Positions 17,263 to 33,515 of a stretch of DNA of 64,000 bases are shown piece by piece. The notes beneath the pieces are model-generated. The model made no database searches. It saw only the letters and a program-made list of their open reading frames with translations, and was not told the origin of the DNA. The position numbers and the translations under genes were made by a program. The first letter of the stretch is position 1, and every line of letters starts with the position of its first letter. Origin of the DNA: Brasilonema sp. CT11 (GTDB lineage Bacteria; Cyanobacteriota; Cyanobacteriia; Cyanobacteriales; Nostocaceae); NCBI RefSeq assembly GCF_017982655.1, contig NZ_JABXYX010000021.1, forward strand, positions 1 through 64,000, written 5' to 3'.

Positions 17263-17344
17263 CACAAAGTCCTCTATTACTAATAACACGATGCCTAGAC
17301 TATCATGATAGCGCGGCTTCAAGAAATTGATTACGTCTAGATCA

Positions 17345-17626: not shown

Positions 17627-17998
17627 CATTAATTCCTCTATTATTAATAAAAGTCTATTGGTTAGACAGTACTTTTGTTTCCGTCTCCAGTCTGATTAAT
17701 TGTGTGGATTTTTTATAACTAAAGACTGTGACTCAATGATAAGTGCAAATATCATATGTTTTTATCTATCCGACATTCTGCAGGTAAGCGATCGCTCACC
17801 TGCAGCGCGGAGCGCAGATCGCTTAAATGGATTTTCACTCGTTTGAGTCAAAAGACGTTGGGCGAACCCAAACAATTGAGAATGCTGTCAACAATTTGGG
17901 AAAAAAGAAAACTCAACACTGAACGCCGATATCCTTTGTCCATTCAAACAGTGAACAGTGAAAAGTACCAAAAATATTTGGGAAGAAAACAAAACCTC
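17627..17998. repeat. Gap with a HIP1-centred palindrome
   Basis: Positions 17778-17805 form a 28-base near-perfect palindrome (CTGCAGGTAAGCGA and TCGCTCACCTGCAG, one mismatch) centred on the HIP1 core. The rest is AT-rich. Open frames here show no family signature. The region lies behind the TPR-CHAT gene and upstream of paralogue B. Confidence 0.5.
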
Positions 17999-20707
17999 TC
18001 ACGTCCAGTTACCAATCAGCACATACGCCGCCCAGTAATAGGGTTGTTGTCGATAGTTGGGATCTTTAAGAATTGCAAGTTGGGCACGACGGAGGGCTTC
18101 TGCTTTGGAGATACCTGTTTTACTGATTTGCGCCAATTGATCATAAAATTGACCGATGAGCGTTGCTGAAGCTTCATCGTTGACGCGCCACAACGTAGCT
18201 ACGGTACTGCGTGCGCCGGAACGCACTGCAACCCCCGCTAATCCTAATGCCGAACGAGTATCGCCAGCTGCTGTTTCACATGCACTCAGCACAAGGAGTT
18301 CAAGCGAATTGTTCCGCGACAGTTCGACTGTTTTGAGGACGCTACTGAGTTGATTGACTTTGATTTTGCCATCCCAAGTGAGAATAAAAGTATCATCTGC
18401 TGTAGAGCCAAATTGACCGTGTGTTGCTAAATGAACAATCGGTGACGAAACAGCAGATACCCTATTTTGAAAGGCGGTATTTGTAAACTTTTGGTTAAAC
18501 AGGATTTGGGTTGGAATCTCGGATTTAATTTTATTTACCTCAGTCTCGACATAAGGTAGTGACGGAAACGCTGGAGGACGTGCGGCATTAAGTCCAGCAA
18601 CCAATGCACCTAGTTGTTCTTGTTTGAGCGATCGCGGCGACAAAAGTTGCAATCCAGGTGTCAAAGCAATACTATATTGTTCTACAAGGAACTTTTGACC
18701 ATCGTGCAGTGCCGCCATCGGAATATTTCGCAAAACACCATCTAAAACAAAGACCAAGGTTTCGACTTTGCTCGCGGCAAGTTCTGCGGCTACCGGACGG
18801 ATAAGCCAATTATATAATTTTTGGAGTTGCGGCAATGCCAAGTTTCCGGTTGTGTTTTGCTGAAGATCTTGGCGCAGCACCGATACGAGATTTTCCACCT
18901 GTTTGCTGCTGACATCGGTTTTGTAGTAGCGTAAATTGCGAGGTTGCTTGGTTTGGTTTTGGCTCGCGGATAACGGTAAACTCGTGATGATGGCAAGCTG
19001 GTCTTCTAAAAGGATGGGGTAAATCACAGCTGCACGTTGATCCACCTGATCAATCAGTGCTGGATTTCCATTCAGACATGCTTCCCGGAAGAAGTTATCG
19101 AGTTCGACCAATTGTAATGCTTCAATAACATCCCGCGCCACCTTCAAGTCATCGGGTTTATTCGAGTTCACCAAGAGTCCGACGAGTTGACGGTGAATTG
19201 GCTCAACAGCATAGCGGAAAGAAAACTGTAAATCTGGACTCGCCGCCGCTAAATCTGTTCGCAGAGATTTGATTGTGGCGACTGCTTGCTTATAAGCTGC
19301 GATCGCACCTGTGTTTTTACCTTGAGCCTTCAGCACCCGTCCCAGCTGCCACTGCCAAAGATAAATGCTATCATCTGCGTTACTTTGTTGCGCTAACTGG
19401 AGTGCTTCTGAGGTTAATTTTTCTGCCTCATCCCACTTCTGCGTTTTTTCGTAAACATTGCCTAGGCTACCCAGCGCGTAGGCAAGGGTGTGTGAATCTC
19501 CTAAATCTTTGGCTTGTTGTACCGCCTTTGTCAGAAGAGCTTCAAGCAACGAAGATGTTCCTTTTTTTTGGCTTTCCATCCGCATCATCGACTGGGCAAG
19601 ATTCACCCGTGCCTCAATTGCGGTGCGACTCGGAGGTAATGCCTCGATTTGTTGTTGAACCTGTGGCAGGAAGGTTTGAGCCGCAGACTGTTGATTGCTA
19701 TCGACGAGTAAACTGAATTGATTGACTTGTGCTTGTACCCGTAAATGAGGAGAAACCGTAGAAGCTGCTTGTTGATAGAACTTCAAGGCAGCTTGGGCAG
19801 CTTGGGGATCAATTGGAGTTTCGTCAGTTTTATCCAGGCTGAGTTGAGCACGGGCAGTGTTACCGAGGCCCAGTTGAGCTAATGTGATGATGTCGGGTAG
19901 TTGCAACTTGGTGGCGATCGCCAGACTACGCTCTAAAACCAGGCGTGCTTGAGTCAAATTACCAGTCACCCGCAGCGAATCTCCTAAAGTACGAAGCGCG
20001 GTTGCAGTTTCTGGGGAGGCAGAAATTCCTTGCAGTTGACTTTCTAGAGTTTTGAGTTGAACAGCGTTGGTTATTGTTTCAGTATTCGTCGTTGAACGCT
20101 GTGGTAACTTTAAGGCGGTTTGGAGTAAGGCGATCGCCCGTCGATATAATCCTAAGTTTTGTAAAGCTTGTGCCTGGTTAACTTGGCTCATGAGTGCCTT
20201 CTCAGGCTTGCCTAGCTGAGTGTAAACAAGTGTGGCGCTTTCCCAGGATTTCAGCGCGTCTTCGGTTTTTCCACGTGCCAGGAATAAACCGCCTTGGATG
20301 TCGAGGACTTGTGCCAGCGTCAGTGATTTCTCTGAGGAGTTTGGTATAGTTGCTTCTATAAGTGCAAGACTGTCAGCGATCGCTTTACTAGCATCATTCC
20401 ACTGTCCCAGTTGTTGATAGCAAAGCGATAAATTGCTAAGACTGAGAGCTTGACGGATCGGGTTTCCAGCAGCTTTATAAGCAAGGGCGGCTTGTTGAAA
20501 AAGCGTTGCTGCTTCTGTAAATTGATTGGTGCTGTAGTGCGATCGCGCCTGCTGTTCGAGAGTTGATCCAGATTGGCTTTGGGCTATCAATGTGGAAGTT
20601 ACTGGAGTTTGAGCAAGTATAGGTGATGTAATACACAAGAAGGAAGTTATCACCATTGGGATAACAAAACGAATAAATCGCTTATGGTGTCGTTTAGTAG
20701 ATTTCAT
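17999..20707 (-). CDS. TPR-CHAT protein 2, secreted or membrane-anchored
   Basis: From ATG 20707 the protein has 902 residues; a GTG nine bases upstream is the alternative. A signal peptide (IPMVITSFLCITSPILAQ) precedes several TPR-type helical repeats (about residues 45-520) and a C-terminal CHAT domain. The caspase-like dyad is His763 (HLATHG) and Cys810 (LSACETA), and the end PYYWAAYVLIGNW is complete. The signal peptide suggests the peptidase acts outside the cytoplasm. It is the last gene of a minus-strand cluster with the exoprotein, DUF928, CHAT-CHASE2, DUF1822 and sigma-like genes, although higBA lies on the opposite strand between it and the exoprotein gene. Confidence 0.9.
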   Translation of the reverse strand: MKSTKRHHKRFIRFVIPMVITSFLCITSPILAQTPVTSTLIAQSQSGSTLEQQARSHYSTNQFTEAATLFQQAALAYKAAGNPIRQALSLSNLSLCYQQLGQWNDASKAIADSLALIEATIPNSSEKSLTLAQVLDIQGGLFLARGKTEDALKSWESATLVYTQLGKPEKALMSQVNQAQALQNLGLYRRAIALLQTALKLPQRSTTNTETITNAVQLKTLESQLQGISASPETATALRTLGDSLRVTGNLTQARLVLERSLAIATKLQLPDIITLAQLGLGNTARAQLSLDKTDETPIDPQAAQAALKFYQQAASTVSPHLRVQAQVNQFSLLVDSNQQSAAQTFLPQVQQQIEALPPSRTAIEARVNLAQSMMRMESQKKGTSSLLEALLTKAVQQAKDLGDSHTLAYALGSLGNVYEKTQKWDEAEKLTSEALQLAQQSNADDSIYLWQWQLGRVLKAQGKNTGAIAAYKQAVATIKSLRTDLAAASPDLQFSFRYAVEPIHRQLVGLLVNSNKPDDLKVARDVIEALQLVELDNFFREACLNGNPALIDQVDQRAAVIYPILLEDQLAIITSLPLSASQNQTKQPRNLRYYKTDVSSKQVENLVSVLRQDLQQNTTGNLALPQLQKLYNWLIRPVAAELAASKVETLVFVLDGVLRNIPMAALHDGQKFLVEQYSIALTPGLQLLSPRSLKQEQLGALVAGLNAARPPAFPSLPYVETEVNKIKSEIPTQILFNQKFTNTAFQNRVSAVSSPIVHLATHGQFGSTADDTFILTWDGKIKVNQLSSVLKTVELSRNNSLELLVLSACETAAGDTRSALGLAGVAVRSGARSTVATLWRVNDEASATLIGQFYDQLAQISKTGISKAEALRRAQLAILKDPNYRQQPYYWAAYVLIGNWT

Positions 20708-20788
20708 AGGAAGCACTTCTCATTGCTAATTATTGTCTCACTGGATGGACACGCGCTTGCCCACTTCTGATACTCAACAATTAACCAG

Positions 20789-20951
20789 TTATACCAATTC
20801 TCCATGAGGATGCACTTAATGTTTATTAAACGAACCGCCAAGACGAGCCAGCGCTGCAGGAGGGTTTCCCTCCGTAGGCGACTGGCGTCGCCAAGAACGC
20901 CAAGAATGAAAGAGTAAGTATTAAGTGCAAGTTTACAGAGAATTGGTATAA
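20789..20951. mobile_element. 163-bp MITE-like insertion with inverted terminal repeats
   Basis: The ends TTATACCAATTCTC (20789-20802) and GAGAATTGGTATAA (20938-20951) are perfect inverted repeats, followed inwards by a second pair, TGCACTTAAT (20811-20820) and ATTAAGTGCA (20920-20929). The centre is a GC-rich palindromic repeat. TA at both outer ends fits the target-site preference of IS630/Tc1-type transposases. It has no coding capacity. It borders directly on the remaining part of higB. Confidence 0.75.
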
Positions 20952-20953
20952 GT

Positions 20954-21103
20954 CCTATTAATTTTACGGTTTTCAATATTAAAGGAAATAAATAGCGATT
21001 AATCGTGAGCATAGATTATGAAGGGCAATTAATTTATATTAAATATATCCTCACTCATGCAGAATACGATAAGGAAGAATGGAAAAATGACCCTTACTTT
21101 TAA
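20954..21103 (+). pseudogene. higB: 3' remnant of higB toxin
   Basis: In one frame the strand reads INFTVFNIKGNK, stop (TAG 20993-20995), RLIVSIDYEGQLIYIKYILT and HAEYDKEEWKNDPYF, stop 21101-21103. This is the conserved C-terminal half of HigB mRNA interferases (TVFNI.GNKYRLI...ILTHAEYDK). The N-terminal half is gone, replaced at the left by the MITE-like element, and a Tyr codon has become TAG. It overlaps the higA start by 17 bp, the normal higBA arrangement. Confidence 0.85.
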
Positions 21104-21491
21104 TCCAGAGAAATATAAAGAATTATTAATTACTTATATTCCTAAAATTATCAGGACTGAAGCAGAAAATAAACAAGCTTTAGCCATTGTAGAAGATTTA
21201 ATGCACCGGGAACGTACTCCTGAAGAAAATGAACTATATCAGTTATTAATTACTTTAATTGAAAAATTTGAACAAGAATATTATCAGCCTGATCAGCAGA
21301 TGAATCCTCCCTCTATGCTCTTGTTCCTTTTAGAACAATCTGACAAAACTAGAGAAGATTTGCAGGTGATTTTAGGATCAGAAAATTTGATTGCTGATAT
21401 TTTAGATGGACAACAAAAGATAACTCCAGAACAAGCGCGAAAGCTGGGAGAATTTTTTCATGTTGAGTCGAGCTTATTTACTGTTATTTAG
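21087..21491 (+). CDS. higA: HigA-type antitoxin
   Basis: From ATG 21087 the protein has 134 residues: an N-terminal helical part (TLTFNPEKYKELL...) and a C-terminal XRE-type helix-turn-helix (about 85-125, LEQSDKTREDLQVILG, then LDGQQKITPEQARKLGEFF). This is the layout of HigA antitoxins that pair with HigB; an in-frame ATG at 21057 is less likely because it would lie deep in higB. The toxin upstream is a pseudogene, so this is an orphan antitoxin that may persist as a repressor or as protection against related toxins. Its stop overlaps the exoprotein gene end by 8 bp. Confidence 0.85.
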   Translation: MTLTFNPEKYKELLITYIPKIIRTEAENKQALAIVEDLMHRERTPEENELYQLLITLIEKFEQEYYQPDQQMNPPSMLLFLLEQSDKTREDLQVILGSENLIADILDGQQKITPEQARKLGEFFHVESSLFTVI

Positions 21492-24400
21492 AAACAGGAC
21501 ATACCGTTGCTGCAGGACGACTAGATGGCGTCGCTTGAGGTGCAAAAGCAACTAATGTAATGTTGCCATCGCGATCTTTAACCCAGCCTTGCGCTTCAAC
21601 AATTGCAGGTGCAGTGGGCGTAACGGCTATTGATGGCGATGTTTGCGGTACGTTAGCAGAGTTTTGTGAGTCCAAAGTTGCCAACTCACTCAAGTTAGGT
21701 GTACCTGCCAAAGGTTCTAGAGGATTTGGTTGTAAACTGCCGCGTCCGGTAATGATAAATTCGCCTAAAGGTTTGGCATTGGGGCTTCTGGGGCAGATTT
21801 GGGCAATTTGGGTAGTGGCATCAACGACTTGAGTGGGTAGTTCAATCAGTCCAGAGGTGCGTTCGACTTCTGGTTGTGTAATGAAGATTTGTCCTTGGAC
21901 GCCGAGTTGGGAACTGGCGGTGATGTCGCTTTGTGGGGGGGGGAAGGAAGCCCGAACAATGCCGAACACTCCCTGAGTGTTGATGGTGATGTTACCGCCA
22001 CGTCCTTGAAAGGCGTTGGCAAATATGTCACTGTTTTCTTTGGGAACTGCGACGATGAATTTGCCATTGATTGTGATGTTACCGCCGTTACCGCCTTGTG
22101 CTGCAGTGGCAGAAATCAGGCTATTTCGACGTAATAAAAGTAGATTTGCGTTCTTAATGCTGATGTTGCCACCATCTTGAGATGCTGTTTCAGCGACAAT
22201 ATTAGCGCGATCGCTCAGTCGTACCGTGTTGGCATTAATGTTGATATCGCCTGCAACTGCACTGCCTTGACTATCAACAGAGATAAGAGCGCGATCGCTG
22301 ATATTCAACTGACGAGCGTGAACGCCTATAGTGCCACCTTTACCAGAGGAATCCTTTGTAGTGGTTGCATACAATCCACTGGTATCACTTTCATTAGTAA
22401 CAGTCGATCTGCCAAACTCGGCAAGTCGTTGGGCATAGGTGGAATCAACCCCAGCAAGATTAATGCGATCAGCGTTGAGGGCGATCGTACCACCTGAGCC
22501 ACTACTGCTTGTTGAGGTGAGAATTTGGCCACCGTTCGTGAGATCAATGGTATTGGCGTTAATGGTGACGTTGCCGCCACTGAAAGCGTTATCTGTAGTA
22601 GCGCGGATTGTAGCTCCTTGGTTCAAGTTAAAGGTATTTGTATTGAGGGTAATGTCCCCGCTAGCTTTTGTTGCCGTTGCCGTGCTTCTGGCGCTGATGT
22701 AACTGGATGATCCGCTCTGGATACCACCATCTAGCGTGATGTTGTCGCTGGCATCGATGCGTATATCACCTGCGCGTCCTTTTCCGGCAGTGCGGCTGCT
22801 GATGCCTGCTCCATCACGGATAGTGAGGCGATCTGTAGTAATGTTGAGATTACCGCCATTACCGTTGGCTCCTTCTTCAACCGCTGAGGATAAATAGCTG
22901 TTTACACCACCAAGTGCAATGTCATTTGCCCGAATGGTTAAGTTACCTGCACTTCCATTGCCGGAGCTGCTGGACGATATATATGCTCCATCTTGTAAAT
23001 TTAATCGTTGAGTGTTAAGACGGATATCGCCTGCATTGCCAGTTGATCCTTCAGACTGAGCTAATATCGCAGTAGATTTTCCACGCAAATCAATTAGGTT
23101 CGCATTAATCAAAACATTCCCAGCATTGCCTTGAGCGAAGGTTTCAGCAGAGATTTGTCCTCCATTACTCAGGCTCAAGCGTTTTGTTTCGACGTTGATG
23201 CTACCACCAGAACCGATCCCTCCAGTTTGCACTTGAGCAAATAAACCAGAGCCTAATGGTATACCATCGCCGTTTGAAGGACCTACCCCAGAAATGTCAA
23301 TTGAGTCACTAGCTCGAACCACCAAATTACCAGCTTGTCCTCGTCCATCTATTACTGATGTGTTCAACCTCGCGCCATTGCTGAGTCGCAACCGTTCTGT
23401 ATCAATGGTCAACGTTCCACCCTTGACATCCGTTTCAGGCAGTGAAACCTGGGTGCTTATACCGCTTCGAGAGAAACCAACATTGGGTACTGTCACAAAC
23501 CCGTCAAGTTCAACATCCTTAGCACGGATAGTGACGCTTCCAGCATTGCCCTCACTTTGTATGGATGAGGTACTTACCGTTCCTCCTTGGCTCAGGCTGA
23601 ATCTCGGTGTTTCAATTGTAATGTTGCCACCGTTACCAGTTGCTCTTGAAGTCTCACTACCTCCAGTATCACTTGATATGTAACTATAAGACCCAGGCAC
23701 GGATGGTGAGACACCATCAATTTTTACAGAGTCACTGGCTCGAATGACGATGAAGATTTGTCCTTGGACTCCGAGTTCGGAACTGGCGGTGATGTCGCTT
23801 TGTGGGGGGGGGAAGGAAGCCCGAACGATGCCGAACACTCCTTGAGTGTTGATGGTAATGTTACCGCCGCGTCCTTGAAAGGCGTTGGCGGTGATGTCAC
23901 TGTTTTCTTTGGGAACTGCGACGATGAATTTGCTATTGATTGTGATATTGCCACCGTTGCCAGCATCTTGTAAAAGACCTGCAGTTGCAGAAATGTTACC
24001 ACCGCGCCGCAGCAGGAGTAGCTCCGAGTTAAGAGTGATGTCACCTCCATCGACTGCGTTGGACTGAGCATTAATCGTGCCTTGGTTATCGAGTGTCAGG
24101 CGGGGCGTATTCACGATGATATTGCCAGCAGGACCTGTTGCACTAGAGCGAACCGAGAGACTGCTATTGGGTGAAATTTGAACAACACGGCGAGGAAACT
24201 GGCTTAAACGGCTGGAGTAAGTTGGATCGCTACCTGCAATATCGACTTTATTTTTTGCATTAATTGTAATTGTGCCAGCAGAACCGCTGCTTTCGCTGGT
24301 GCTGAAAATCTGTCCGCCATTTAGTAGTTGTAAACTGTCAAGGGTAATATTGATATTCCCTCCGGGCTTATCGTTGAAAGTGCGAGCATCTATGACAGCA

Positions 24401-26892
24401 CCATCGCGAACTGTTAGCTGTGGTGCTGTAATTGTGATATTGCCACCTTTCCCTTTACCAACAATTGTCGGTCCGGTTCCAGCAATAGCAGGATTATCCC
24501 CTGTGGTCGAGAAAATAGCACTGGAGCCTTTTGTCTCCTGACTGATACCTGCGACTGTGATAGGCTGCGTCGCAACAATGGTTATATTACCTGCATCTCC
24601 GTCACCAAAAGTACTAGCATCGATTTGTGAACCATTTATTTGTTCTAAGGAACTTGTTGTGATAAATATATCTCCGCCCTTTCCGACTGCATTTTGATTA
24701 ACCCTGCTTTGAATGTCGCCAGAGTCAAGAACAATGCGATCACGGGCGTTGATGATAACATTGCCTGCATTGCCCTTTCCCTGTGTGCCGGCAATCACCG
24801 CCGCGCCATCTCCTCTCATAAATAAAGATCCAGTTGTAATCTCGACGTTGCCACTATTGCCGACTGCACCTGGTCGCACTAGGCTGACAGCACCACCTTG
24901 TTCGTCGTTGAAAATCCCTGTAAATTCAACGTGATCGCGTGCATTGATCACGACATTACCTGCATTTCCTCGTCCGAAAGTTTCTGTTTGCAGTACTCCC
25001 AAATTAGTACCTGTTAGCGTCCCCGTACTGACATGAATATCTCCCCCCTTACCGCTACCGCTCTTATCGACTTGGTTAATGATAGCTGCACGATTATTTA
25101 AGGCAATTTGATCGCGAGCGTTGATGATAATATTGCCTGCATTGCCCTGACCAAAAGTAATTGCACCCAGTTGGGCACCATTATCAAGCAATAGCGATCC
25201 AGTGGCGATCGCGATGTTGCCCCCCTGACCTGTTGCGCCAGAAGCTACTTGGCTAAAGGCTCCACTGCTTCTCCCCTCAAAAGAGACGTGATCGCGGGCA
25301 TCAATTGTAATATTCCCTCCTTTACCTTGTCCGAACGTGGTGGTTCTCAGTTCAGCACCACCAACAATCGATAATAGTCCCGTGTCAATCACAATGTTGC
25401 CACCGTTACCGCGTTCCACAAAAGTCTGGATGCTTGCATTGGTATTGAGAGAAACTTGTTCGCGGGCGTTAATAAGAATATCCCCTACATTCCCTTGTCC
25501 AAAGGTAAAAGTAATTATGGCAGCGCTATCAGCAATGGATAACGATCTTGTATTAAAGCGAATCTTACCCCCAGTCCCAATCGCGTTATTTTGCACACCG
25601 TTGAGAATACGCACATCTTTGTCCAAAGAAACGCGATCGCGAGCATCAATGAGAATATCCCCTGTATTGCCCTGTCCATAAATATTAGCTGATATTCCAG
25701 CACCATTCGTCATAGAAAGCGATCCTGTGCTAATGCGGATATTCCCTGCATTGCCTTTGCCAGTTTTTTCGACATTACCAAAGATAATCGCACCGTTATC
25801 TAAGACAACTTGATCGCGTGCATTAATAATGACACTACCCGCATTGCCCTGCCCAAAGACACTAGCACTGAGCCGAGCTTTATCATTGAGAAGTAACGAG
25901 TCAGCCGTAATCCGAATATCACTACTATTGCCCGATTGATTTTCAAATACGTTATTTGCAATTTGACTGCCTTCTCTGATTTGGATTGTGCCTGTCGCAT
26001 TCAAGGTAATATCGCCAGTTTGACTATTTCTTGGTTCACCTGTTCCGATACCTGAAGCAATGTAGCTGTTGCCGGAAATATCTAAGTTGCGAGCATTAAT
26101 TGCAATACTGCCACCATTACCAGCCACCACGAACATTTCAGTACCAAACAGTGAGATATCTGCCCGTGGTAAATCGGTTGGAATGCGAAGACTATAATCT
26201 GGATTTAGCTCAACTGTCCCCGTCCCCGCAATTGCTGCGAGTTCAATCCGCCCACCGAGAACACCCATAATGCCTGTGTTGAAACTGATATCACCTCCTG
26301 CTAGAACAAGGCTTCGTCCTGAGCGTGCTGTCAATATTCCCTGGTTGGCGATCGCCCCCGGATTCAGTTGATTAAAAAACAACGCAGAGGGATTCACTGT
26401 CAACAATGGCGGCGCTTGAGGATTCGTAGCACTAAACTCACCCTGCTCCCCAAAGCGAAAAGCACTCGCACTCGTCCCCACAAACGATCCACCGATATCC
26501 AACTGGGCATTGGGACCAAACAAAATGCCATTGGGATTGAGCAAAAACAAATTCGCGCTACCGTTAACGCCCAACGTTCCCAAAATATTTGAGGCTTCCT
26601 TACCTGTCACCCGCGTCAGAATATTTTGTATTCCTGCTGGGTTGACAAAATACACTCGTTGCCCATTACTCACATTGAACTGAGTAAAACTGTGGAAAAG
26701 GTTGCTTCCGCGTTGAGCACCGCCAGAAATGCTGTCAGCTGCTGCACCCTTGATTTGGACATTGGGTGTGAGGCGCGAACTTTCTGCCCCAAGGGTGTTA
26801 TCTGGAGTAATTTGAGCGTGAGCAACCTTGCTGGTAAGCAGGATGAGGCTGCATAGCAGGGAGTATTGAAGCCAAGTGTGTTTCTGATTCAT
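21484..26892 (-). CDS. Giant filamentous-haemagglutinin-type exoprotein (TPS secretion domain)
   Basis: The 1,802-residue protein starts with a signal peptide (LLCSLILLTSKVAHAQ) and a TPS/haemagglutination-activity domain (about 27-190: FHSFTQFNV, VNPAGIQNILTRVTG and the NLFLLNPNGILFG motif). About 1,500 residues of right-handed beta-helix repeats follow (units with GNAG.I.I.A.D.V.L and GG.I.I.T). The C-terminus is Pro/Ser-rich. Such proteins leave the cell by two-partner secretion through a TpsB/FhaC-type pore, not seen in this window. A ~60-residue block (GKFIVAVPKENSD... SDITASS.LGVQGQIFI) occurs twice, about residues 980-1050 and 1600-1670, nearly identical in DNA (23750-23950 and 21885-22075). 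Likely role: surface or matrix protein. Confidence 0.9.
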   Translation of the reverse strand: MNQKHTWLQYSLLCSLILLTSKVAHAQITPDNTLGAESSRLTPNVQIKGAAADSISGGAQRGSNLFHSFTQFNVSNGQRVYFVNPAGIQNILTRVTGKEASNILGTLGVNGSANLFLLNPNGILFGPNAQLDIGGSFVGTSASAFRFGEQGEFSATNPQAPPLLTVNPSALFFNQLNPGAIANQGILTARSGRSLVLAGGDISFNTGIMGVLGGRIELAAIAGTGTVELNPDYSLRIPTDLPRADISLFGTEMFVVAGNGGSIAINARNLDISGNSYIASGIGTGEPRNSQTGDITLNATGTIQIREGSQIANNVFENQSGNSSDIRITADSLLLNDKARLSASVFGQGNAGSVIINARDQVVLDNGAIIFGNVEKTGKGNAGNIRISTGSLSMTNGAGISANIYGQGNTGDILIDARDRVSLDKDVRILNGVQNNAIGTGGKIRFNTRSLSIADSAAIITFTFGQGNVGDILINAREQVSLNTNASIQTFVERGNGGNIVIDTGLLSIVGGAELRTTTFGQGKGGNITIDARDHVSFEGRSSGAFSQVASGATGQGGNIAIATGSLLLDNGAQLGAITFGQGNAGNIIINARDQIALNNRAAIINQVDKSGSGKGGDIHVSTGTLTGTNLGVLQTETFGRGNAGNVVINARDHVEFTGIFNDEQGGAVSLVRPGAVGNSGNVEITTGSLFMRGDGAAVIAGTQGKGNAGNVIINARDRIVLDSGDIQSRVNQNAVGKGGDIFITTSSLEQINGSQIDASTFGDGDAGNITIVATQPITVAGISQETKGSSAIFSTTGDNPAIAGTGPTIVGKGKGGNITITAPQLTVRDGAVIDARTFNDKPGGNINITLDSLQLLNGGQIFSTSESSGSAGTITINAKNKVDIAGSDPTYSSRLSQFPRRVVQISPNSSLSVRSSATGPAGNIIVNTPRLTLDNQGTINAQSNAVDGGDITLNSELLLLRRGGNISATAGLLQDAGNGGNITINSKFIVAVPKENSDITANAFQGRGGNITINTQGVFGIVRASFPPPQSDITASSELGVQGQIFIVIRASDSVKIDGVSPSVPGSYSYISSDTGGSETSRATGNGGNITIETPRFSLSQGGTVSTSSIQSEGNAGSVTIRAKDVELDGFVTVPNVGFSRSGISTQVSLPETDVKGGTLTIDTERLRLSNGARLNTSVIDGRGQAGNLVVRASDSIDISGVGPSNGDGIPLGSGLFAQVQTGGIGSGGSINVETKRLSLSNGGQISAETFAQGNAGNVLINANLIDLRGKSTAILAQSEGSTGNAGDIRLNTQRLNLQDGAYISSSSSGNGSAGNLTIRANDIALGGVNSYLSSAVEEGANGNGGNLNITTDRLTIRDGAGISSRTAGKGRAGDIRIDASDNITLDGGIQSGSSSYISARSTATATKASGDITLNTNTFNLNQGATIRATTDNAFSGGNVTINANTIDLTNGGQILTSTSSSGSGGTIALNADRINLAGVDSTYAQRLAEFGRSTVTNESDTSGLYATTTKDSSGKGGTIGVHARQLNISDRALISVDSQGSAVAGDININANTVRLSDRANIVAETASQDGGNISIKNANLLLLRRNSLISATAAQGGNGGNITINGKFIVAVPKENSDIFANAFQGRGGNITINTQGVFGIVRASFPPPQSDITASSQLGVQGQIFITQPEVERTSGLIELPTQVVDATTQIAQICPRSPNAKPLGEFIITGRGSLQPNPLEPLAGTPNLSELATLDSQNSANVPQTSPSIAVTPTAPAIVEAQGWVKDRDGNITLVAFAPQATPSSRPAATVCPVSK

Positions 26893-27337
26893 TAGGAACT
26901 ATGTGTAGTAATGGTAGGTGTGTGGCTGGAAACTATATTTCTGACTATTTCTGGCTATGCTCCACATATGCAGCACTCGTCGGGCGACTAAGCGAACGTA
27001 GCTTCGAGCGCTTGGGCAACAAAAGCAATCTTACCATCAGTGGAATTGTTGGATGCGTTTAAGAAATATGCCTCAACAATCACCTCATAGCAACTGAAAT
27101 CTTGCACGATTCTCAAGCTTGCATTCTCGTCCACCTGGGATTTAAATCCCAGGCTCATAGGAAAAGTCTACTTTAGTAGACTGCATGAGCTTTTCAGTCT
27201 ACTAAAGTAGACTTGGGCTGATCGCCTCGGAATTGATTCCGAGGCGATCAAAATGGGCTAATTGAAAGTGATGCAAAAAGTCAATTTAACGGACTTGGCT
27301 TATAAGCCTAGGACTGTAAGTCCTAGGCGTACTCCGG
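26893..27337. repeat. Gap with four stacked palindromes
   Basis: Palindromes lie at 27134-27153 (CCTGGGATTT and complement), 27165-27182 (AGTCTACT-TT-AGTAGACT), 27196-27213 (AGTCTACT-AA-AGTAGACT) and 27220-27249 (GATCGCCTCGGAAT-TG-ATTCCGAGGCGATC). The last has 14-bp arms and could terminate the DUF928 transcript. A further copy of the motif CCTAGGACTGTAAGTCCTAGG is at 27308-27328. A relative of this array is at about 35589-35645. The exoprotein promoter should lie close to 26893-26960. Confidence 0.7.
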
Positions 27338-28324
27338 TTAATTTGCTTGTGTTGTTGTCGTTTGCTGAGTACACAAATTTGCGACATATGTTTGCCGTTG
27401 CTCAACAAAAGACGGAGACGGATTCTCAACATCGTAGAGGGTTTGCACAGCATCTGACCAAGCTTTGGCATCTCCGTTTTTATCATTCTCCTGTTTAATT
27501 TTGTAGTTGGTAAAGTAATCTGCTTTTATCACTGCAATATCTTCTTGGGAAGCTTTCGTTGCTCGTAGTTTCTGCTCTAAGGTTTGCAAATCTGCTTGGA
27601 TTTTATCGCGATCGCCTGCAGCCATAATCTGAAATGTTGTCCATAGGTTACGATCAGAACTTGAGGACTCAGCTCCTAACAGTTGCCATTGATAAAGTTT
27701 ACCTGGTTGCAAGGGTTCTTTCCCGTTGTAGGCGATTTTTTTATCTGTGGGGTTGAGAGATTGTGTCCACAGTACGGTTTGAGTTTCGCGATCGCGCACG
27801 GTAATCTGAGCAGCTCTACCTTGCCAGAGAAACAACGGGCGATCGCGCCAAATAACGTATGTTTCCAGCAAACCAGGTGAAATGGCGCAAATACCACTGC
27901 GTGCGCCTAAACGATGACGGGGACGCCGCTGCCAAAATGCGCTAAGCCTAGCTGTAAATCCTTGCTGGACAACCGGTTGAGGAGATTTAGGAACTGGGGC
28001 AGTCTGGGCGTTGCTGATCGCAGTGGTACTGACGAATAAGGGGATAATTGCATAGATAAACAAAAACTTGCGGTGTTGAAGATTAAATTGAATCGGGCTT
28101 ACGCTGAAGAGATCCCCCAACCCCCTTAAAAAGGGGGCTTTTAAGATTCTCTCGTTTTTAAGGCTATCGTGTACACACATCTCGTTTTTTACCTCACCCT
28201 CGCTTTTCGCTGCGCTAAAATCTTTCCCTCTCCTTGCTAAGGAGAGGGATGCCCGACAGGGCAGGGTGAGGTTCCGAGGAGGTTTCGGGTTTTGAGTGCG
28301 TAAGTCCTGTTGAATATTAAACAT
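27338..28324 (-). CDS. DUF928 protein with a repeat-derived N-terminal extension
   Basis: The frame gives 328 residues and overlaps the CHAT-CHASE2 stop by 8 bp. The recognisable protein starts late: a signal peptide at about residues 84-106 (FLFIYAIIPLFVSTTAISNAQ) followed by the DUF928 domain (PRHRLGARSG.C, W.DRPLF.W.G.A, QWQL, and a C-terminal helical part with Q.YVANLC). The preceding ~70 residues translate a palindromic repeat (28191-28272) and a CCCCCTT/AAGGGGG palindrome, so an insertion has separated an original start (MFNIQQD) from the signal peptide, or translation starts internally at a non-ATG codon. DUF928 genes often neighbour CHAT and haemagglutinin-type genes in cyanobacteria. 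Probably periplasmic. Confidence 0.8.
   Translation of the reverse strand: MFNIQQDLRTQNPKPPRNLTLPCRASLSLARRGKDFSAAKSEGEVKNEMCVHDSLKNERILKAPFLRGLGDLFSVSPIQFNLQHRKFLFIYAIIPLFVSTTAISNAQTAPVPKSPQPVVQQGFTARLSAFWQRRPRHRLGARSGICAISPGLLETYVIWRDRPLFLWQGRAAQITVRDRETQTVLWTQSLNPTDKKIAYNGKEPLQPGKLYQWQLLGAESSSSDRNLWTTFQIMAAGDRDKIQADLQTLEQKLRATKASQEDIAVIKADYFTNYKIKQENDKNGDAKAWSDAVQTLYDVENPSPSFVEQRQTYVANLCTQQTTTTQAN
28191..28272. repeat. Palindromic repeat (ACCTCACCC/GGGTGAGGT family) inside the DUF928 frame
   Basis: The ends ACCTCACCC and GGGTGAGGT and the inner CCCTCTCCTT...AAGGAGAGGG hairpin match the elements at 2837-2934, 3021-3118 and 30770-30828. It lies within the open frame of the DUF928 gene. Confidence 0.8.
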
Positions 28325-30737
28325 CTTTCTCTCTCCTTGTAGCAGGTAAAACGTAAGCCAAAAACACTAACGAAGGTAAAAGCCAGGGGAGCAAAACCGA
28401 AGCCCAAATATAAAGCTGTAGCCCAATGACGCCATAAACTGCTGTTGCTCCTATCGCAGCAGTCCTGATTTGTAAGCGACGGGTTGGACTCATTGAAAAC
28501 TGCTGGCGTTTGAGGAGTAATACGGTGATTTTGCCGAGGATGACAGCAACACCAATCACCCAGAAATCAGGGATAGGAATCACAAAGTGTCGCCGGAGAA
28601 AATGGTGAGTCATGTACGCCAAAGATTCACCCCCTGTCAGCTGAGATTGTTGCGTCCAATATCTCATCGCCGCAGGTGCATCAAAGCGATCCGCTTTTCC
28701 AGGTGCGATTCCTAAGCGTTCGTCGCTTCCCACCGCAATCAGCACAACCTGCGAAAGTAGTGGAGATTTGTTAATTTCGGGATCTTCAAGCAATTTCCAA
28801 GCGGGAATTCGCTGATAAACGCGATCAGGGGGAAGGGAGAAATCGACTATAGGTTGTAAACCAAAGGGCGGATACCAGTTTAAAGGAGGAGGTAAATCGC
28901 GGATTTTGGGAGCTATCTGCTCAATTGCACTCAGCAATTGAGTGCGTAAGCTGATCTTACTTGTATCGAGCCTTGGTAAGTCAAGGATTGAGGAGCGAGA
29001 TGTGTGCACAAGTGACATTAAATAAGCCATTGGGCAAGCTTGGCGACAATCTTGATCTGGAAGCGGGATTTCAACAAAGTGGGGATCAACCACATCTATA
29101 TATCCTTGCACTGTCCAATTTTCACTTGCAATAGCAGTAGCTTTACTGATGCTCAACTCACGACCCGATTCCAAAATCCCAGCAATTATTAACCACGTAT
29201 TTTGGTCAACTGCTTGCTGTACGGCTTTTGCTAAATCTTGATCTCCAGATGGGGGGTCTTTTTGCGGTGTATCAAGCACCACATCTAACCCAACGACGGA
29301 AGCATTTAATTTTTGTAGGCGTTCGATTAACTTTGCTAAATAGCTACGATTAATCGGATTGAGTTGGGAAATGCGACCATGAGAAATCGATTCGGTATCA
29401 ATCTCCACGAGTGCAACTGGGGGATCTTCCTCAGACGGGACTTGAACGGTTGCGTCGCGGTAAATTGACTGGACGAATGTGCGCCCGTTCAATAGTTGCC
29501 CTGCAACGGGGGGAATGCAACTGAGGACAATACTGGTGCATAGTGCGATCGCCTCAATCGGTTTTGGTAATAAATCATATAATTTTTTTGGCAATTTTCC
29601 TCGGTTTATACGGAATAAAGCAGAGCCTGGATAGCAAAACAACGAAGGCACCAAAGAAGCAGAGGGATAAGTATGACTCTTTTCCATCCGCAGAAATTGA
29701 CGCGCCGCCATCATCGACTCGTACACATCCAAGTGTTTCGCCAACCCTTGCAGAAATCGTACCAAAAATTCCTGCGCCACACAATTGTGGATCGGTTCGC
29801 GCATCACCACAACTTGACTAAAACCAATATCAATCAACGCATCTGCAAGACTTAGTCCACTACAGGAGTTGAAAATAGCAACCTGTAGACCGAGTTTTTT
29901 TGCAGCTATCAATTGTGATCTAATTTCGCTGATCGAAATTGACATACCAGGAGCAATTCCTAACTCGCCCCCTGTCATCTGAGTTTCGTTGCTGTGTCCG
30001 GCAAAAAATAGTATATCCCACCCTTGCTGGTCTGTTATTGCCTTAGTAATTTGTTGGATGGCTTGCTGTGGTGTTTGCTTTGGTTGCCAACCAACAAACT
30101 GGATATCTGCAATGCGGGAGAGCGATCGCACAGCCTGCCGATCTGCTTCAAAATTTAACCCAGTATCATCACCCAAAATCGCCAGAATACGCGCACGTCG
30201 CCGTTGTGGTCTTGTGTACTGGCTTGGGCTTTCTGTGGCAATATTTAAAGGAGCGCGAATAATCCGAATTGTTCCTGTGGTTGCGAACTCTGTGCCAAAT
30301 TCCCAAGCTTCCCAAGGAAAACGGGCTAACTCAAGGGGTGCACAGGTGAGAAAAAGTTGCACAGTCTCAGTTGTTTGTGGATTCGCCTTGACAAATTCTT
30401 GACTTAGTTTGGCAATCTGTGCGCGAATTTCGTACAGTTCGGCACTGCGTAACCAGCGATGAAACTCAAACATAAACTTTGTTTCCGCTTTAACAAGTTC
30501 CGCGTGCCAGTCCACTTTTATAGTTGCAATTCCACCACTAATCGCCCGTCCCCGCATTTGTTCCGACTGATAAAAGTTGAGATATGCCCGCCGCCATTCC
30601 TCATAAAGCGAAGATAAGACAGTTGGATAATTGATTTGCACACTTAGATTTTGTCCTTGTCCCCAAGACAACGCAAACAAGCAAATTTTCTCAACTTTTT
30701 GAACTTTCAGGTGAAGAAAATGGGAATTAAATTTCAT
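28317..30737 (-). CDS. CHAT-CHASE2 membrane protein
   Basis: The 806-residue protein has an N-terminal region ending in a CHAT peptidase-like domain (about 130-365). The presumed dyad is His248 in FFAGHS and Cys292 in FNSCSG. A transmembrane segment follows (about 385-410), then a CHASE2 sensory domain (about 425-690: VALVEIDTESI, then ...VVGLDVVLD...). Three closing transmembrane segments span about 705-800. The CHASE2 part should be extracytoplasmic and the CHAT part cytosolic, so the protein can couple an outside signal to an inside peptidase. It follows the DUF1822 gene by 109 bp and overlaps the DUF928 gene start. Ligand and target are unknown. Confidence 0.88.
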   Translation of the reverse strand: MKFNSHFLHLKVQKVEKICLFALSWGQGQNLSVQINYPTVLSSLYEEWRRAYLNFYQSEQMRGRAISGGIATIKVDWHAELVKAETKFMFEFHRWLRSAELYEIRAQIAKLSQEFVKANPQTTETVQLFLTCAPLELARFPWEAWEFGTEFATTGTIRIIRAPLNIATESPSQYTRPQRRRARILAILGDDTGLNFEADRQAVRSLSRIADIQFVGWQPKQTPQQAIQQITKAITDQQGWDILFFAGHSNETQMTGGELGIAPGMSISISEIRSQLIAAKKLGLQVAIFNSCSGLSLADALIDIGFSQVVVMREPIHNCVAQEFLVRFLQGLAKHLDVYESMMAARQFLRMEKSHTYPSASLVPSLFCYPGSALFRINRGKLPKKLYDLLPKPIEAIALCTSIVLSCIPPVAGQLLNGRTFVQSIYRDATVQVPSEEDPPVALVEIDTESISHGRISQLNPINRSYLAKLIERLQKLNASVVGLDVVLDTPQKDPPSGDQDLAKAVQQAVDQNTWLIIAGILESGRELSISKATAIASENWTVQGYIDVVDPHFVEIPLPDQDCRQACPMAYLMSLVHTSRSSILDLPRLDTSKISLRTQLLSAIEQIAPKIRDLPPPLNWYPPFGLQPIVDFSLPPDRVYQRIPAWKLLEDPEINKSPLLSQVVLIAVGSDERLGIAPGKADRFDAPAAMRYWTQQSQLTGGESLAYMTHHFLRRHFVIPIPDFWVIGVAVILGKITVLLLKRQQFSMSPTRRLQIRTAAIGATAVYGVIGLQLYIWASVLLPWLLPSLVFLAYVLPATRREKDV

Positions 30738-30769
30738 ATAGGAGTTTTGTTAGTAGTTGAGGGCGTTAT

Positions 30770-30828
30770 ACCTCACCCCTTCCCCTCTCCTTATCAAGGA
30801 GAGGGGTACCCCAAGGACGGGGTGAGGT
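30770..30828. repeat. Short member of the ACCTCACCCC/GGGGTGAGGT palindromic family
   Basis: A 59-bp palindromic element between the DUF1822 and CHAT-CHASE2 genes with ends ACCTCACCCC and GGGGTGAGGT and an inner CCCCTCTCCTT/AAGGAGAGGGG hairpin. In an mRNA it would form a strong stem loop and could set the relative expression of the two genes. Confidence 0.75.
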
Positions 30829-30846
30829 TTGGATACGAAACGGATT

Positions 30847-32139
30847 TCATATTATTTCCAACTCAAAACCAAAAGGTGGAATTTCAAAAACAGCATGATC
30901 AGCGCTCACCGTCACCCAAAATCGTTCGCCCCAATTACCAATAACTTGAGCATAGAGTATATCCTGATTTGTGTTCTCCTGAGACTGTTCAAAGAGTAGC
31001 TGTGTTTCATCTTTAATTTCCAGCTTGAGGTGCATTGATAGCTGCGTCGGCTGTTGTGGACTTAAAGCAATCAGTAACATCCATTCCGGAGAATCTAATT
31101 CTTGCGATACTACCCACGTCACCGCGTAGAGTCGCAAACTTCCCTGTTCCCAACGCAAGTCGCGGTAAGCGCCTCGCGCTGTTGCAGGAATTTGAACGCC
31201 TTGCTGTTCCAAAGCTGTGCGAATCTTATAAAAGTCTTCTTCCAATGATCGTAGCCCAGACAATGTTAGCGATGGCATAAGCATCCATCCCAATTCCTGA
31301 GCCACCGTATCAAGCTGGTTGCGTAACCACAAACCAACGTTGATCAGGGGTTGAGAACGCGCTTGAGCGGAAACTTCGTACACCCAGTTAACGAGTTCAG
31401 GGTTTTGCAACAATGTCTTACCTTCTTCGACTGTTAGCAATTCCCAAACGGGCTTAGTTACAAGTTGAGATTGTAGTGTTGTCAGTTTTTGCCGCAGTAC
31501 TGTATCACTCTCCTGTTGTGCAGATGAAGTTGTGGGTAGAACGATCGCATCTGGTTCTAAGCAACGCAGATTCAGCAGTAGCGCGTTGGGATCAGAATTA
31601 AACCAGGTTATAGGTAGTGTATACGTCCAATCTTGTTCAAGTTGAAGTGATGCAGATGCTTGATATCGACAGTACTGTTCGTAGTTTAAAAAACCAGAGA
31701 CTGCAACCTGTTGTTCCTCTTCCTCCACCTGGATTTGTACATAGAAATGAGCCGCAAAATCAGGGATGTCAAAAACTGCACTTGGGAAGCTGACTTGGTT
31801 TTCATCTAGATTGCTAGAAGCTACGATGCAGAGTTTGAAGGAATCAACTTGAACGTTACACACCGCCGCTATCAAATTTGCATACGCTGGTTGCCAAATT
31901 GAGGCATCTGTGCTAGTCATTCTCAAATCTGGGGCGCGATCGCTCAGCCATTGCTCAAATCCTAGTGCAGCCAACGCAGCTAGATAAACTTGCCAGCGTT
32001 GATCTGGCAAATGAATTGATTGACTCAGACGCGCAGCTGTTTGTAATTGGTCTGATGATAGCTCGGTTTGTGAATCATTAAGCGATCGCCAATCGAGTAA
32101 ATCTGTCAAATCTGGCATTGATGCAGGTTGATCAATCAT
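30847..32139 (-). CDS. DUF1822 protein
   Basis: This 430-residue, probably soluble protein matches the DUF1822 layout: an N-terminal segment (FDAPQWLSDRAPDL-type region here FEQWLSDRAPDLR), a middle beta-rich part and a long C-terminal part with LTVEEGKTLL and VNVGLWLRNQLDTVAQELGW. Its start codon overlaps the stop of the sigma-like gene (ATGA at 32136-32139), so the two are translationally coupled. DUF1822 proteins regularly accompany CHAT-CHASE2 genes in filamentous cyanobacteria, but no activity is known to me. Confidence 0.85.
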   Translation of the reverse strand: MIDQPASMPDLTDLLDWRSLNDSQTELSSDQLQTAARLSQSIHLPDQRWQVYLAALAALGFEQWLSDRAPDLRMTSTDASIWQPAYANLIAAVCNVQVDSFKLCIVASSNLDENQVSFPSAVFDIPDFAAHFYVQIQVEEEEQQVAVSGFLNYEQYCRYQASASLQLEQDWTYTLPITWFNSDPNALLLNLRCLEPDAIVLPTTSSAQQESDTVLRQKLTTLQSQLVTKPVWELLTVEEGKTLLQNPELVNWVYEVSAQARSQPLINVGLWLRNQLDTVAQELGWMLMPSLTLSGLRSLEEDFYKIRTALEQQGVQIPATARGAYRDLRWEQGSLRLYAVTWVVSQELDSPEWMLLIALSPQQPTQLSMHLKLEIKDETQLLFEQSQENTNQDILYAQVIGNWGERFWVTVSADHAVFEIPPFGFELEII

Positions 32140-33515
32140 GATGTAGGAATCCTTGAATCGAGATAACGACAGATGCGACGTGCCAAGAGACTGGGTAGGG
32201 ATTGATTGCGAACCGGATTTTTTGCCTCGGATTCTGCTTCCTGGATGATGCCCGTAATTTGTTCATCTAGAATCACTTCTACCTGTTGATCTAAGCTTTG
32301 TAAACGTTCGGAGTTAGTATACATCTTGGCGTAATCAACAATGCGCGATTGCAACATCACGAGTAATCGCTGACGGATATCAGCACGTAAATCGTTAAGT
32401 TTTAATAAACGAGTCACTTCATATTGTTTTTTTAATCCAATTTGCGGCGCGATTTGACTCATAGATTGACCTTGGCAATGGAAAAGATGTAGAGCATTGA
32501 TAAATAATTGCTTTACCGATGAACGTTTGCGTTGCAGCTGAGAAATCCAATCGCCAATGACTTGAGAAATCGCCTGATCTAAACATTGAATAAATTGATT
32601 TTGATAATATTTAAGAAATTCAACAATTTCATGATCATCTTGAACGACCTCTGAGCGATCTACAAACGGTTGAATCTCTGTTTGATCGAAAGAAACGCCA
32701 GGAACCATTCCTCCTTGTGCCGAAATCCGAGATTGCCGGATTTTGGATGCGATCGCATTTAACTGTCGCAAGACTGCTTCAGGCGTGAGTCTGCGAATAC
32801 TGCGAACTTTCAAGTCATCAGCGATACGAATTAACTGCTGAGGCGTTGGTGGCTGACAGGGTTGTTTCGTCCCAGTAATGCGCTGTTGCAGGCGGTCTTC
32901 ACGATAGACTGCATGAAAGCTTTGTAAAAGTTCACAATTTTGCTGAATTTCAATTTGTGTTAACTGATACACATCCGCAAGAATTTGCTGTAATCGCTTC
33001 GAGGTTGTATCGTTCAGCAATGCCCAATCGCTGATTATATAAACACCATGCTGTAACAAAAACCGCTTTAGTTCTGGATGTTGCCGAACATAACGTGTTA
33101 CCCATGTGTTGAGCGTTCCCTTTGCTGGATCGAAACTTTGCAAAATAGTCGTCGCCAGAGAACGATAGGGAACACTTTCAGGCGAGTTTGATGAAACCCG
33201 CCCCTGATCATCTAAAACAAAAGGCAATAAATCTTGATAAGTAAAACCGTGGCGACTGCCAAACTTAACTGCCAAACCCAGACAAGCTTGATTGATTTGG
33301 TGTGAGATATAGCAGCGTAAACAACTCTGGGCCATTTTTTCATTCTGCCGCATTTGCAGCCAAAGTTGGCGCACAATCGTTGTATCAGGGACGTTATTCG
33401 TCCATTCAGGAAATTGGTTTTGGAAATACGTCTTAACAGCAATCATTGTTTCCACCCGACGCGAGCCAGTTGAATCTAACTTGACAAGTTGCCAGTATTT
33501 TGATGCAGATACCAC
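32136..33515 (-). CDS. Sigma-70-like regulatory protein
   Basis: This 459-residue protein begins with GTG at 33515 (YWQLVKLDSTGSRRVETMIAVKTYF). Two parts recall sigma factors. At about residues 125-160, FDPAKGTLNTWVTRYVRQHPELKRFL looks like region 2 (compare FDP.KG...TW). At about 335-385, KRSSVKQLFINALHL and SMSQIAPQIGLKKQYEVTRLL resemble a region-4 helix-turn-helix. The long middle and the ~60-residue tail are unlike standard sigma factors. It heads the cluster and is coupled by ATGA overlap to DUF1822, so it may direct transcription of the cluster. Sigma activity is inference; an RNA-polymerase-independent role is possible. Confidence 0.65.
   Translation of the reverse strand: MVSASKYWQLVKLDSTGSRRVETMIAVKTYFQNQFPEWTNNVPDTTIVRQLWLQMRQNEKMAQSCLRCYISHQINQACLGLAVKFGSRHGFTYQDLLPFVLDDQGRVSSNSPESVPYRSLATTILQSFDPAKGTLNTWVTRYVRQHPELKRFLLQHGVYIISDWALLNDTTSKRLQQILADVYQLTQIEIQQNCELLQSFHAVYREDRLQQRITGTKQPCQPPTPQQLIRIADDLKVRSIRRLTPEAVLRQLNAIASKIRQSRISAQGGMVPGVSFDQTEIQPFVDRSEVVQDDHEIVEFLKYYQNQFIQCLDQAISQVIGDWISQLQRKRSSVKQLFINALHLFHCQGQSMSQIAPQIGLKKQYEVTRLLKLNDLRADIRQRLLVMLQSRIVDYAKMYTNSERLQSLDQQVEVILDEQITGIIQEAESEAKNPVRNQSLPSLLARRICRYLDSRIPTS

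What the first reader, a model, noticed from the sequence alone, without database searches (positions are those of the whole stretch)
17999..33515. Sigma-like / DUF1822 / CHAT-CHASE2 / DUF928 / giant exoprotein / TPR-CHAT cluster as one system
Seen: six minus-strand genes, with ATGA coupling between the first two, an 8-bp overlap between the third and fourth, two caspase-like CHAT proteins (one with an extracytoplasmic CHASE2 sensor, one with a signal peptide) and a TPS-domain exoprotein. Known: CHAT domains are caspase-fold peptidases used in conflict and signalling systems. Inference: an outside signal read by CHASE2 could trigger proteolysis that controls the sigma-like factor or processes the surface protein, for kin recognition, adhesion or cell death.
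Basis: partly seen in the sequence, partly recalled or inferred. Interest (0 to 1): 0.75.

Follow-up and report, generated by a model that had tools for sequence, protein, structure and literature searches.

The report
Sigma–caspase operon controlling surface proteins
A cyanobacterial gene cluster appears to be a membrane-sensor and caspase-like protease operon with its own alternative sigma factor, and a newly found promoter signature links it to a giant surface protein, secreted proteases and related exported proteins.

Summary
The six genes are real, and the first four form an old operon: SIG, DUF1822, CHAT-CHASE2, DUF928. All four are in order in 40 of 61 named cyanobacterial loci, and 23 of 43 CHAT-CHASE2/DUF928 pairs share the exact 8-bp overlap. 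The first three genes match a published prediction, the EACC2-caspase systems with ECF sigma and DUF1822 (PMC8195603, passages read). The model of the 459-aa protein resembles sigma factors.

New here is a bipartite promoter-like element, TGCATAAG-N11-CAGAAATA. In the window it precedes the sigma gene and the exoprotein gene; in relatives also some TPS exoprotein, CHAT and subtilase genes. It is denser in genomes carrying this sigma. A paralogous sigma clade keeps the -35 half (11 of 20 fresh upstream regions) but never the full element (0 of 20). I infer an autoregulated operon driving an exported-protein regulon, with the exoprotein a transcriptional target rather than a protease substrate.

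Not shown: any cleavage, the signal, an anti-sigma role for DUF1822, or the purpose. TPR-CHAT lacks the element in this window and sits behind an opposite-strand ORF.

The parts
33609..33639 (-). Promoter-like element of the sigma operon: -35 TGCATGAG, -10 AGAACTA, spacing one base shorter than the family consensus
   Evidence: PWM score 27.0, 93 nt before the SIG start; upstream regions; own-genome pattern hit
32136..33515 (-). SIG: sigma-like factor, 459 aa
   Evidence: AF2 model pLDDT 86; 48 of 50 listed structure rows come from sigma or RNA polymerase initiation entries; region 2 and region 4 profile matches in order
30847..32139 (-). DUF1822 protein, 430 aa, 4-bp overlap with SIG
   Evidence: Pfam 4.6e-47; within 400 nt of SIG in 70 of 78 loci; model mixed alpha/beta
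28317..30737 (-). EACC2-like N-terminus + CHAT caspase-like domain + membrane CHASE2 protein, 806 aa (His248, Cys292)
27338..28324 (-). DUF928 protein with a hydrophobic export-like segment; 8-bp overlap with the previous gene; about 80 extra residues after the start, repeat-like by reading, not seen in other -8-overlap relatives
   Evidence: (profile match starts at residue 133, against about 50-70 in most relatives)
26944..26975 (-). Second promoter-like element, upstream of the exoprotein gene
   Evidence: PWM 21.9, 51 nt before the ATG; own-genome pattern hit
21484..26892 (-). TPS-domain exoprotein, 1802 aa
   Evidence: Pfam TPS 6.1e-47
17999..20716 (-). Secreted-type TPR-CHAT protein, 905 aa (His-Cys motifs HLATHG 762, SACET 811); membership in this window less certain
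   Evidence: DNA aligned at 93-96% in a same-genus contig, L227; no element upstream here
34028..35455 (-). S8 subtilase, 475 aa, possible regulon member
   Evidence: Pfam Peptidase_S8 1.2e-63; the 477-aa S8 gene before SIG in L130 has the element at 20.5 bits
35494..35525 (-). Weak promoter-like element before the subtilase (intact -35, decayed -10)
   Evidence: 14.4 bits, about 39 nt before the ATG

Best explanation
The cluster is an envelope-sensing, protease-gated sigma-factor operon. The outside CHASE2 part of the membrane protein, perhaps helped by exported DUF928, receives an outside or envelope signal (inferred). Its cytoplasmic CHAT domain is then activated and acts on the SIG-DUF1822 pair, with DUF1822 holding SIG in check (inferred; the likely substrate). 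Freed SIG directs RNA polymerase to promoters of the form TGCATAAG-N11-CAGAAATA: its own operon and genes for exported proteins such as the TPS exoprotein, secreted TPR-CHAT peptidases, subtilases and secreted TPR proteins. Shown: conserved operon, sigma-like fold, intact His-Cys pair, the shared promoter-like element and its co-occurrence with SIG. Inferred: that SIG reads the element, the cleavage step, DUF1822 as inhibitor, and the signal.
Against: No binding, transcription or cleavage data. At 18 bits 29 of 83 SIG genes and 11 of 17 TPS genes have no site. The 6 TPS sites come from five loci, two of them near-identical (window, L129). TPS genes close behind DUF928 could share the operon transcript, but L134, L143, the first TPS of L142 and the second of L138 have larger gaps and no site. 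In the own genome 8 of 13 pattern hits precede no gene of this kind. Two same-genus genomes with no full SIG of this clade (G001, which keeps a 192-codon fragment at 44% identity, and G004) keep a site before a TPR-like or CHAT gene. DUF1822 shows no clear anti-sigma fold. Against an ECF-only alignment the sigma profile match is weak (probability 20% for region 4, 4% for region 2). Part of the genome-level enrichment is the SIG promoter itself, and genomes were not weighted for relatedness; nor were loci.
Confidence: 0.62

Rival explanations
1. The element is read by a different regulator or sigma factor, and SIG is merely one of its targets.
For: Two same-genus genomes without a full SIG of this clade keep the element before a TPR-like or CHAT gene. 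Density in same-family genomes without this SIG is 0.48 per Mb against 0.20 for the reversed control.
Against: Density follows SIG presence; variants match within a locus; the paralogous SIG clade has the same -35 with another -10, as expected of related sigma factors.
Confidence: 0.2
2. The CHAT domain acts directly on exported or surface proteins, and the sigma factor is a bystander of the operon.
For: TPS genes lie within 10 kb of 6 of 12 CHASE2 loci in this genome, five of them on contigs other than the window's (p = 2.5e-5).
Against: The CHAT domain precedes the first membrane-like segment and so is predicted cytoplasmic, while a TPS protein is exported; DUF1822 is the most constant neighbour of SIG.
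Confidence: 0.12
3. The system is a conflict or programmed cell-death module, as proposed for EACC2 systems, and surface-protein control is secondary.
For: Relatives join the same N-terminal and CHAT module to nSTAND1, nSTAND1-WD40 or CHASE2, as in PMC8195603. One gene with the element, in L182, is a C14 caspase-domain protein.
Against: The targets I could identify are mainly exoproteins, CHAT and S8 peptidases and secreted TPR proteins, not obvious intracellular toxins; many unlabelled targets were not identified.
Confidence: 0.25
4. Exoprotein and TPR-CHAT are chance neighbours; only the four-gene core is a unit.
For: 26 TPS and 67 CHAT matches in the genome; TPR-CHAT lacks the element and lies behind an opposite-strand ORF in the window.
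Against: The element stands before the window exoprotein gene and before several relatives' TPS and CHAT genes.
Confidence: 0.15

Closest known systems
EACC2-caspase systems with ECF sigma and DUF1822 (Kaur, Iyer, Burroughs, Aravind, eLife 2021, PMC8195603; abstract start and found passages seen)
   Same: Constant N-terminal domain plus caspase-like domain, variable C-terminus including CHASE2, next to a sigma-like gene and DUF1822
   Different: DUF928 occurs 0 times in the main text; the passages seen mention no exoprotein and no promoter. DUF1822 is called a TPR protein there, while the window protein models as mixed alpha/beta.
Craspase / CASP, type III-E CRISPR (Csx29, Csx30, CASP-sigma; PMC10028731, passages seen)
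   Same: A CHAT protease beside a sigma factor and a third protein; there the protease cleaves the sigma inhibitor, and the locus holds binding motifs for its own sigma
   Different: The sensor here is a membrane CHASE2 protein, not an RNA-guided complex. No homology of DUF1822 to Csx30 is shown. Works-like comparison only.
DegS-RseA-RpoE envelope stress pathway (as described in PMC10028731 passages)
   Same: Envelope signal, proteolysis, released sigma factor
   Different: Protease family and sensor differ; no RseA-like membrane anti-sigma identified
Two-partner secretion (TPS) exoproteins
   Same: TPS domain over the Pfam cut-off
   Different: No TpsB (ShlB) match on this contig; the six ShlB matches lie on five other contigs

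Membership tests
EACC2-caspase system (PMC8195603) | Constant N-terminal module followed by a caspase-like domain | tested here: met
   CHAT 41 bits against cut-off 24; proteins of the second clade match the same N-terminal + CHAT profile from about position 13-21 on. Identity with the authors' own EACC2 alignment could not be checked.
EACC2-caspase system (PMC8195603) | Highly variable C-terminal part | tested here: met
   CHASE2 (window, L096), nSTAND1 (L091), nSTAND1-WD40 (L081, L087); in L079 a pentapeptide region precedes the module instead, and L089 shows CHAT only
EACC2-caspase system (PMC8195603) | Neighbouring ECF sigma and DUF1822 genes | tested here: met
   DUF1822 within 400 nt of SIG in 70 of 78 loci; CHAT-CHASE2 downstream in 53 of 61
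EACC2-caspase system (PMC8195603) | Autopeptidase activation | not testable with these tools
   Needs biochemistry
Sigma-70 family | Region 2 and region 4 folds | tested here: met
   [not shown]
ECF sigma subgroup | Only regions 2 and 4, about 200 aa (recalled) | tested here: inconclusive
   The protein is 459 aa with a large further helical part; the best matches are SigA and SigS entries, with a SigW entry also listed
CHAT (clan CD) peptidase | His-Cys catalytic pair | tested here: met
   His248 and Cys292 invariant in 21 of 21
Craspase (type III-E CRISPR) | Cas7-11 effector in the locus | not tested
   Not searched for; comparison is by mechanism only
Craspase (type III-E CRISPR) | Csx30-like sigma inhibitor | tested here: inconclusive
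   No Csx30 row among the 50 listed for the DUF1822 model; absence from the list is not evidence
Two-partner secretion | TPS domain at the N-terminus | tested here: met
   PF05860 residues 26-232, 161 bits
Two-partner secretion | Adjacent TpsB transporter | tested here: not met
   No ShlB match on contig C158; matches on C160, C131, C302, C211, C403

The most novel reading that the evidence does not exclude
A family of cyanobacterial caspase-gated sigma factors, each with its own promoter code: the -35 half (TGCATAAG) is held in common and the -10 half is private to each clade. A CHAT protease fused to a variable sensor releases the sigma by acting on DUF1822, as Csx29 acts on Csx30. The CHASE2 branch turns an envelope signal into expression of surface exoproteins and a battery of exported caspase-like and subtilisin proteases.
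Probability: 0.35. Interest if true: 0.82.

Novelty: new variant of a known kind. Interest (0 to 1): 0.62.

Why it matters
The published EACC2-caspase systems are a prediction from gene neighbourhoods; which genes their sigma factor switches on was not stated in the passages I saw. A promoter element that predicts those genes makes the output testable in ordinary cyanobacterial strains. It also ties scattered adhesin-like exoproteins and secreted CHAT and subtilisin peptidases into one predicted regulon. If the protease step holds, it would be, to my knowledge, a second and non-CRISPR case of a CHAT protease controlling a sigma factor.

Tried and rejected
Rejected: my first thought (note) that the 8-bp overlap was an artefact of a repeat. 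The overlap is conserved; only the stretch after it in the window's DUF928 looks repeat-derived.

A SIG-DUF1822 fused ORF in L197 was not used as evidence: the SIG part there is split over two ORFs in a MAG contig with coverage 2.8 in its title.

My first guess of the second-clade -10 (CTAT or TATAT) fitted 6 of 20 fresh regions; the word used was chosen after seeing them.

Literature (held library only): searches found no paper on this promoter element or on DUF928 or TPS exoproteins with this operon. One search listed one paper with DUF928 (PMC5587647, a WD40 study) and two papers holding TGCATAAG with 'promoter' and 'cyanobacteri'; I saw only listings and did not read them. (HetF and CHAT) was a listing only. 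Subscription journals are mostly not held.

Dropped rows: the PWM was trained at fixed spacing, which misses the window's own SIG site (found with spacing -1). Of 81 loci 76 had a usable SIG upstream region. skips ORFs with under 200 nt upstream and unlabelled ORFs under 200 aa. One search used the longest SIG per locus; its strict tests fail L130, L138, L160, L173, L178, L180, L182, L197 and L203 although one search shows CHASE2 and DUF928 there, probably because of ORF starts or gaps.
Full report
WHAT IS THERE. Domain calls hold: DUF1822, CHAT plus CHASE2, a TPS exoprotein and a TPR-CHAT protein with an N-terminal hydrophobic segment. DUF928 is supported through relatives: 20 of 28 aligned proteins hit PF06051 at E up to 1 (best 1.6e-6), though the window protein does not. 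The genome is a cyanobacterium of 8.8 Mb. The nearest named relative found is Brasilonema angustatum, 96% identical in SIG (the tool may leave out the genome's own record). A same-genus contig of the same length, L227, also aligns over TPR-CHAT.

ONE OPERON. I compared 60 fetched regions (mostly unnamed relatives) and 80 named loci; many are the same genomes, so counts below use the named set. DUF1822 lies within 400 nt of SIG in 70 of 78 loci with enough DNA. Among 61 loci with at least 6 kb downstream, CHAT-CHASE2 follows in 53, DUF928 directly follows CHAT-CHASE2 in 43, and all four stand in order in 40. The CHAT-CHASE2/DUF928 junction is exactly -8 bp in 23 of those 43; the SIG/DUF1822 junction is -4 in 9 loci. 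SIG identity to the window goes down to 35% in this set, so the order is old. CHAT-domain genes are often inserted before CHAT-CHASE2 or placed after DUF928; TPS genes follow DUF928 mainly where SIG is at least 57% identical, plus L160 (45%). SIG homologs of both clades occur in 33 of 292 genomes sampled across the phylum at E 1e-10, four of them only distantly (E 1e-21 to 1e-24).

A PROMOTER-LIKE ELEMENT. Upstream of SIG in 76 of 81 loci with a usable region a bipartite word stood out: TGCA-N16-AGAA occurs in 29 of 76, while the commonest gapped pair in ten shuffles reached at most 11. A position weight matrix (TGCATAAG, then about 11 bases, then CAGAAATA) finds 53 of 76 at fixed spacing; scanning 20 shuffled copies with it found 0 to 3. 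A matrix re-trained on shuffles from the same seed finds 10 to 25 sites, so the training count alone overstates the signal; the tests below do not have that flaw. With spacing allowed to vary by one, the window has two sites above 18 bits: 33609-33639, 93 nt before SIG, and 26944-26975, 51 nt before the exoprotein ATG. A weaker one (14.4 bits) precedes the S8 subtilase upstream; the S8 gene in the same place in L130 scores 20.5.

WHAT ELSE CARRIES IT. In the 80 named loci plus the window (18 bits or more, 300 nt upstream to 90 nt inside the longest ORF): SIG 54 of 83, TPS 6 of 17, CHAT genes other than the core 15 of 43, S8 4 of 11; against CHAT-CHASE2 1 of 72, DUF928 0 of 58, DUF1822 5 of 80, other ORFs of at least 200 aa 23 of 368, shuffled pieces 0 of 810, and unshuffled random pieces of the same loci 16 of 810. 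Of the 23 others, the few I checked include secreted-type TPR proteins and one C14 caspase protein. The matrix was trained on SIG upstream regions only. In the own genome the strict pattern gives 13 hits against 1 for the reversed pattern. Five precede SIG, the window exoprotein, two genes that read as exported TPR proteins (cut at contig ends, 239-241 nt away) and one exported-looking 268-aa protein (203 nt away); two precede other ORFs and six no ORF found in the stretch. In genome G009, 17 pattern matches are listed; I looked at eight that I chose for their TGCATAAG form besides the SIG one. They precede four TPS genes, two CHAT proteins, a histidine-kinase-like ORF and a C39-type ABC transporter-like ORF; the last two labels are my reading.

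DOES IT GO WITH SIG? Over 119 genomes, matches per Mb are 1.29 in 12 genomes with SIG at 54% identity or more, 0.68 in 21 at 35-46%, and 0.39 in the other 86; the reversed control is 0.30, 0.13 and 0.17. Within the same family the difference is p = 3.5e-7 and the control p = 0.53 (grouped by the best E-value; relatedness not modelled). Subtracting one match per SIG genome for its own promoter leaves about 1.17 per Mb in the first group. Against: two same-genus genomes without a full SIG of this clade still keep a site before a TPR-like or CHAT gene; one of them, G001, has a 192-codon SIG fragment at 44% identity. Within loci, SIG and other sites resemble each other more than across loci (0.757 against 0.687, sd 0.011, 0 of 5000 permutations, 30 loci), though related loci were not down-weighted.

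A SECOND CLADE AS A TEST. The genomes also hold a paralogous SIG clade whose CHAT proteins are built differently. In a first set of 19 upstream regions, 9 hold TGCAT[AC]AG but none the full first-clade form (seen first). I then fetched 20 further regions; some are orthologs of the first set. There 11 of 20 hold the -35 word (shuffled mean 0.36, maximum 2) and 0 of 20 the first-clade form. A second-clade form with -10 CAT[CT]TA fits 9 of 20 (shuffled mean 0.01), 4 of 19 of the first set and 0 of 76 first-clade regions. That -10 word was chosen after seeing the fresh set; my earlier guess fitted 6 of 20. So the -35 result is the clean out-of-sample test. A shared -35 with a clade-specific -10 is what related, diverged sigma factors would produce.

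MECHANISM. Shown: operon, sigma-like fold, intact catalytic pair, hydropathy consistent with a cytoplasmic CHAT and an outside CHASE2, shared element. Inferred: that SIG reads it, that CHAT is activated through CHASE2, that DUF1822 restrains SIG and is cut. The idea is modelled on Csx29-Csx30-CASP-sigma, where a CHAT protease cleaves a sigma inhibitor (PMC10028731, passages seen). One detail fits: in 16 second-clade loci the best stretch of DUF1822 covers only the N-terminal half of the first-clade profile (positions about 2-234), as if one half served the constant partner. One does not: in L072, L074 and L075 only the C-terminal half matches. The DUF1822 model (pLDDT 81) has an N-terminal domain with a tentative nuclease-like fold and a C-terminal beta-sandwich; it shows no TPR array, unlike the label in PMC8195603.

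EXOPROTEIN AND TPR-CHAT. The exoprotein is best read as a target gene. TPS genes 9-134 nt behind DUF928 (L138, L136, L135) lack their own element and may share the transcript. With larger gaps some have one (window 445, L129 443, L130, the second TPS of L142), others not (L134, L143, the first TPS of L142, the second of L138). TPR-CHAT in this window has no element and lies behind a plus-strand ORF, so I include it with reserve. In this genome TPS genes lie within 10 kb of 6 of 12 CHASE2 loci (p = 2.5e-5) and of 8 of 20 strong CHAT genes (p = 8e-6), so the association also exists apart from this SIG (assumes genes spread evenly, contig ends and clustering not modelled).

KNOWN OR NEW. The sigma, DUF1822 and caspase-CHASE2 trio is published as a prediction (PMC8195603, passages seen; supplements not available). 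I found no paper in the held library on the promoter element or on the DUF928 and exoprotein extension. I call it a new variant of a known kind: the system class is known, its predicted output and promoter code are new and untested.

Noticed in passing
window 21057-21491 (+): 144-aa ORF with a weak HTH_3 match (E 0.058) on the opposite strand between the exoprotein gene and TPR-CHAT; an ORF of the same length stands in the same place in L129. It reads like an antitoxin.
   Followed up: partly
window about 28080-28320 and 30760-30850: By reading, a palindrome-like, repeat-like stretch inside the N-terminal part of the DUF928 ORF and a similar one in the DUF1822/CHAT-CHASE2 gap. The same 328-aa DUF928 ORF occurs in L129.
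   Followed up: partly
window 21484-26892: The exoprotein ORF is 1802 aa here and 1223 aa in the B. angustatum contig (L129), apparently through internal repeats gained or lost.
   Followed up: partly
window 14313-15670 (+): Two tandem 201-aa paralogs with a von Willebrand A-like start (DKSGSM), next to the cluster; label from reading, not from a call.
   Followed up: no
window 16963-17629 (-): Two overlapping small paralogs, one very histidine-rich.
   Followed up: no
window 1875-2822 (+): Another CHAT gene with an internal TAA stop.
   Followed up: no
G201, G253, G330 (1.7 Mb genomes): Distant SIG-like proteins (E 1e-21 to 1e-22) in very small cyanobacterial genomes.
   Followed up: no
L197:1179-3814: SIG split over two ORFs, the second fused to DUF1822, in a low-coverage MAG contig.
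   Followed up: partly
[not shown]
   Followed up: partly
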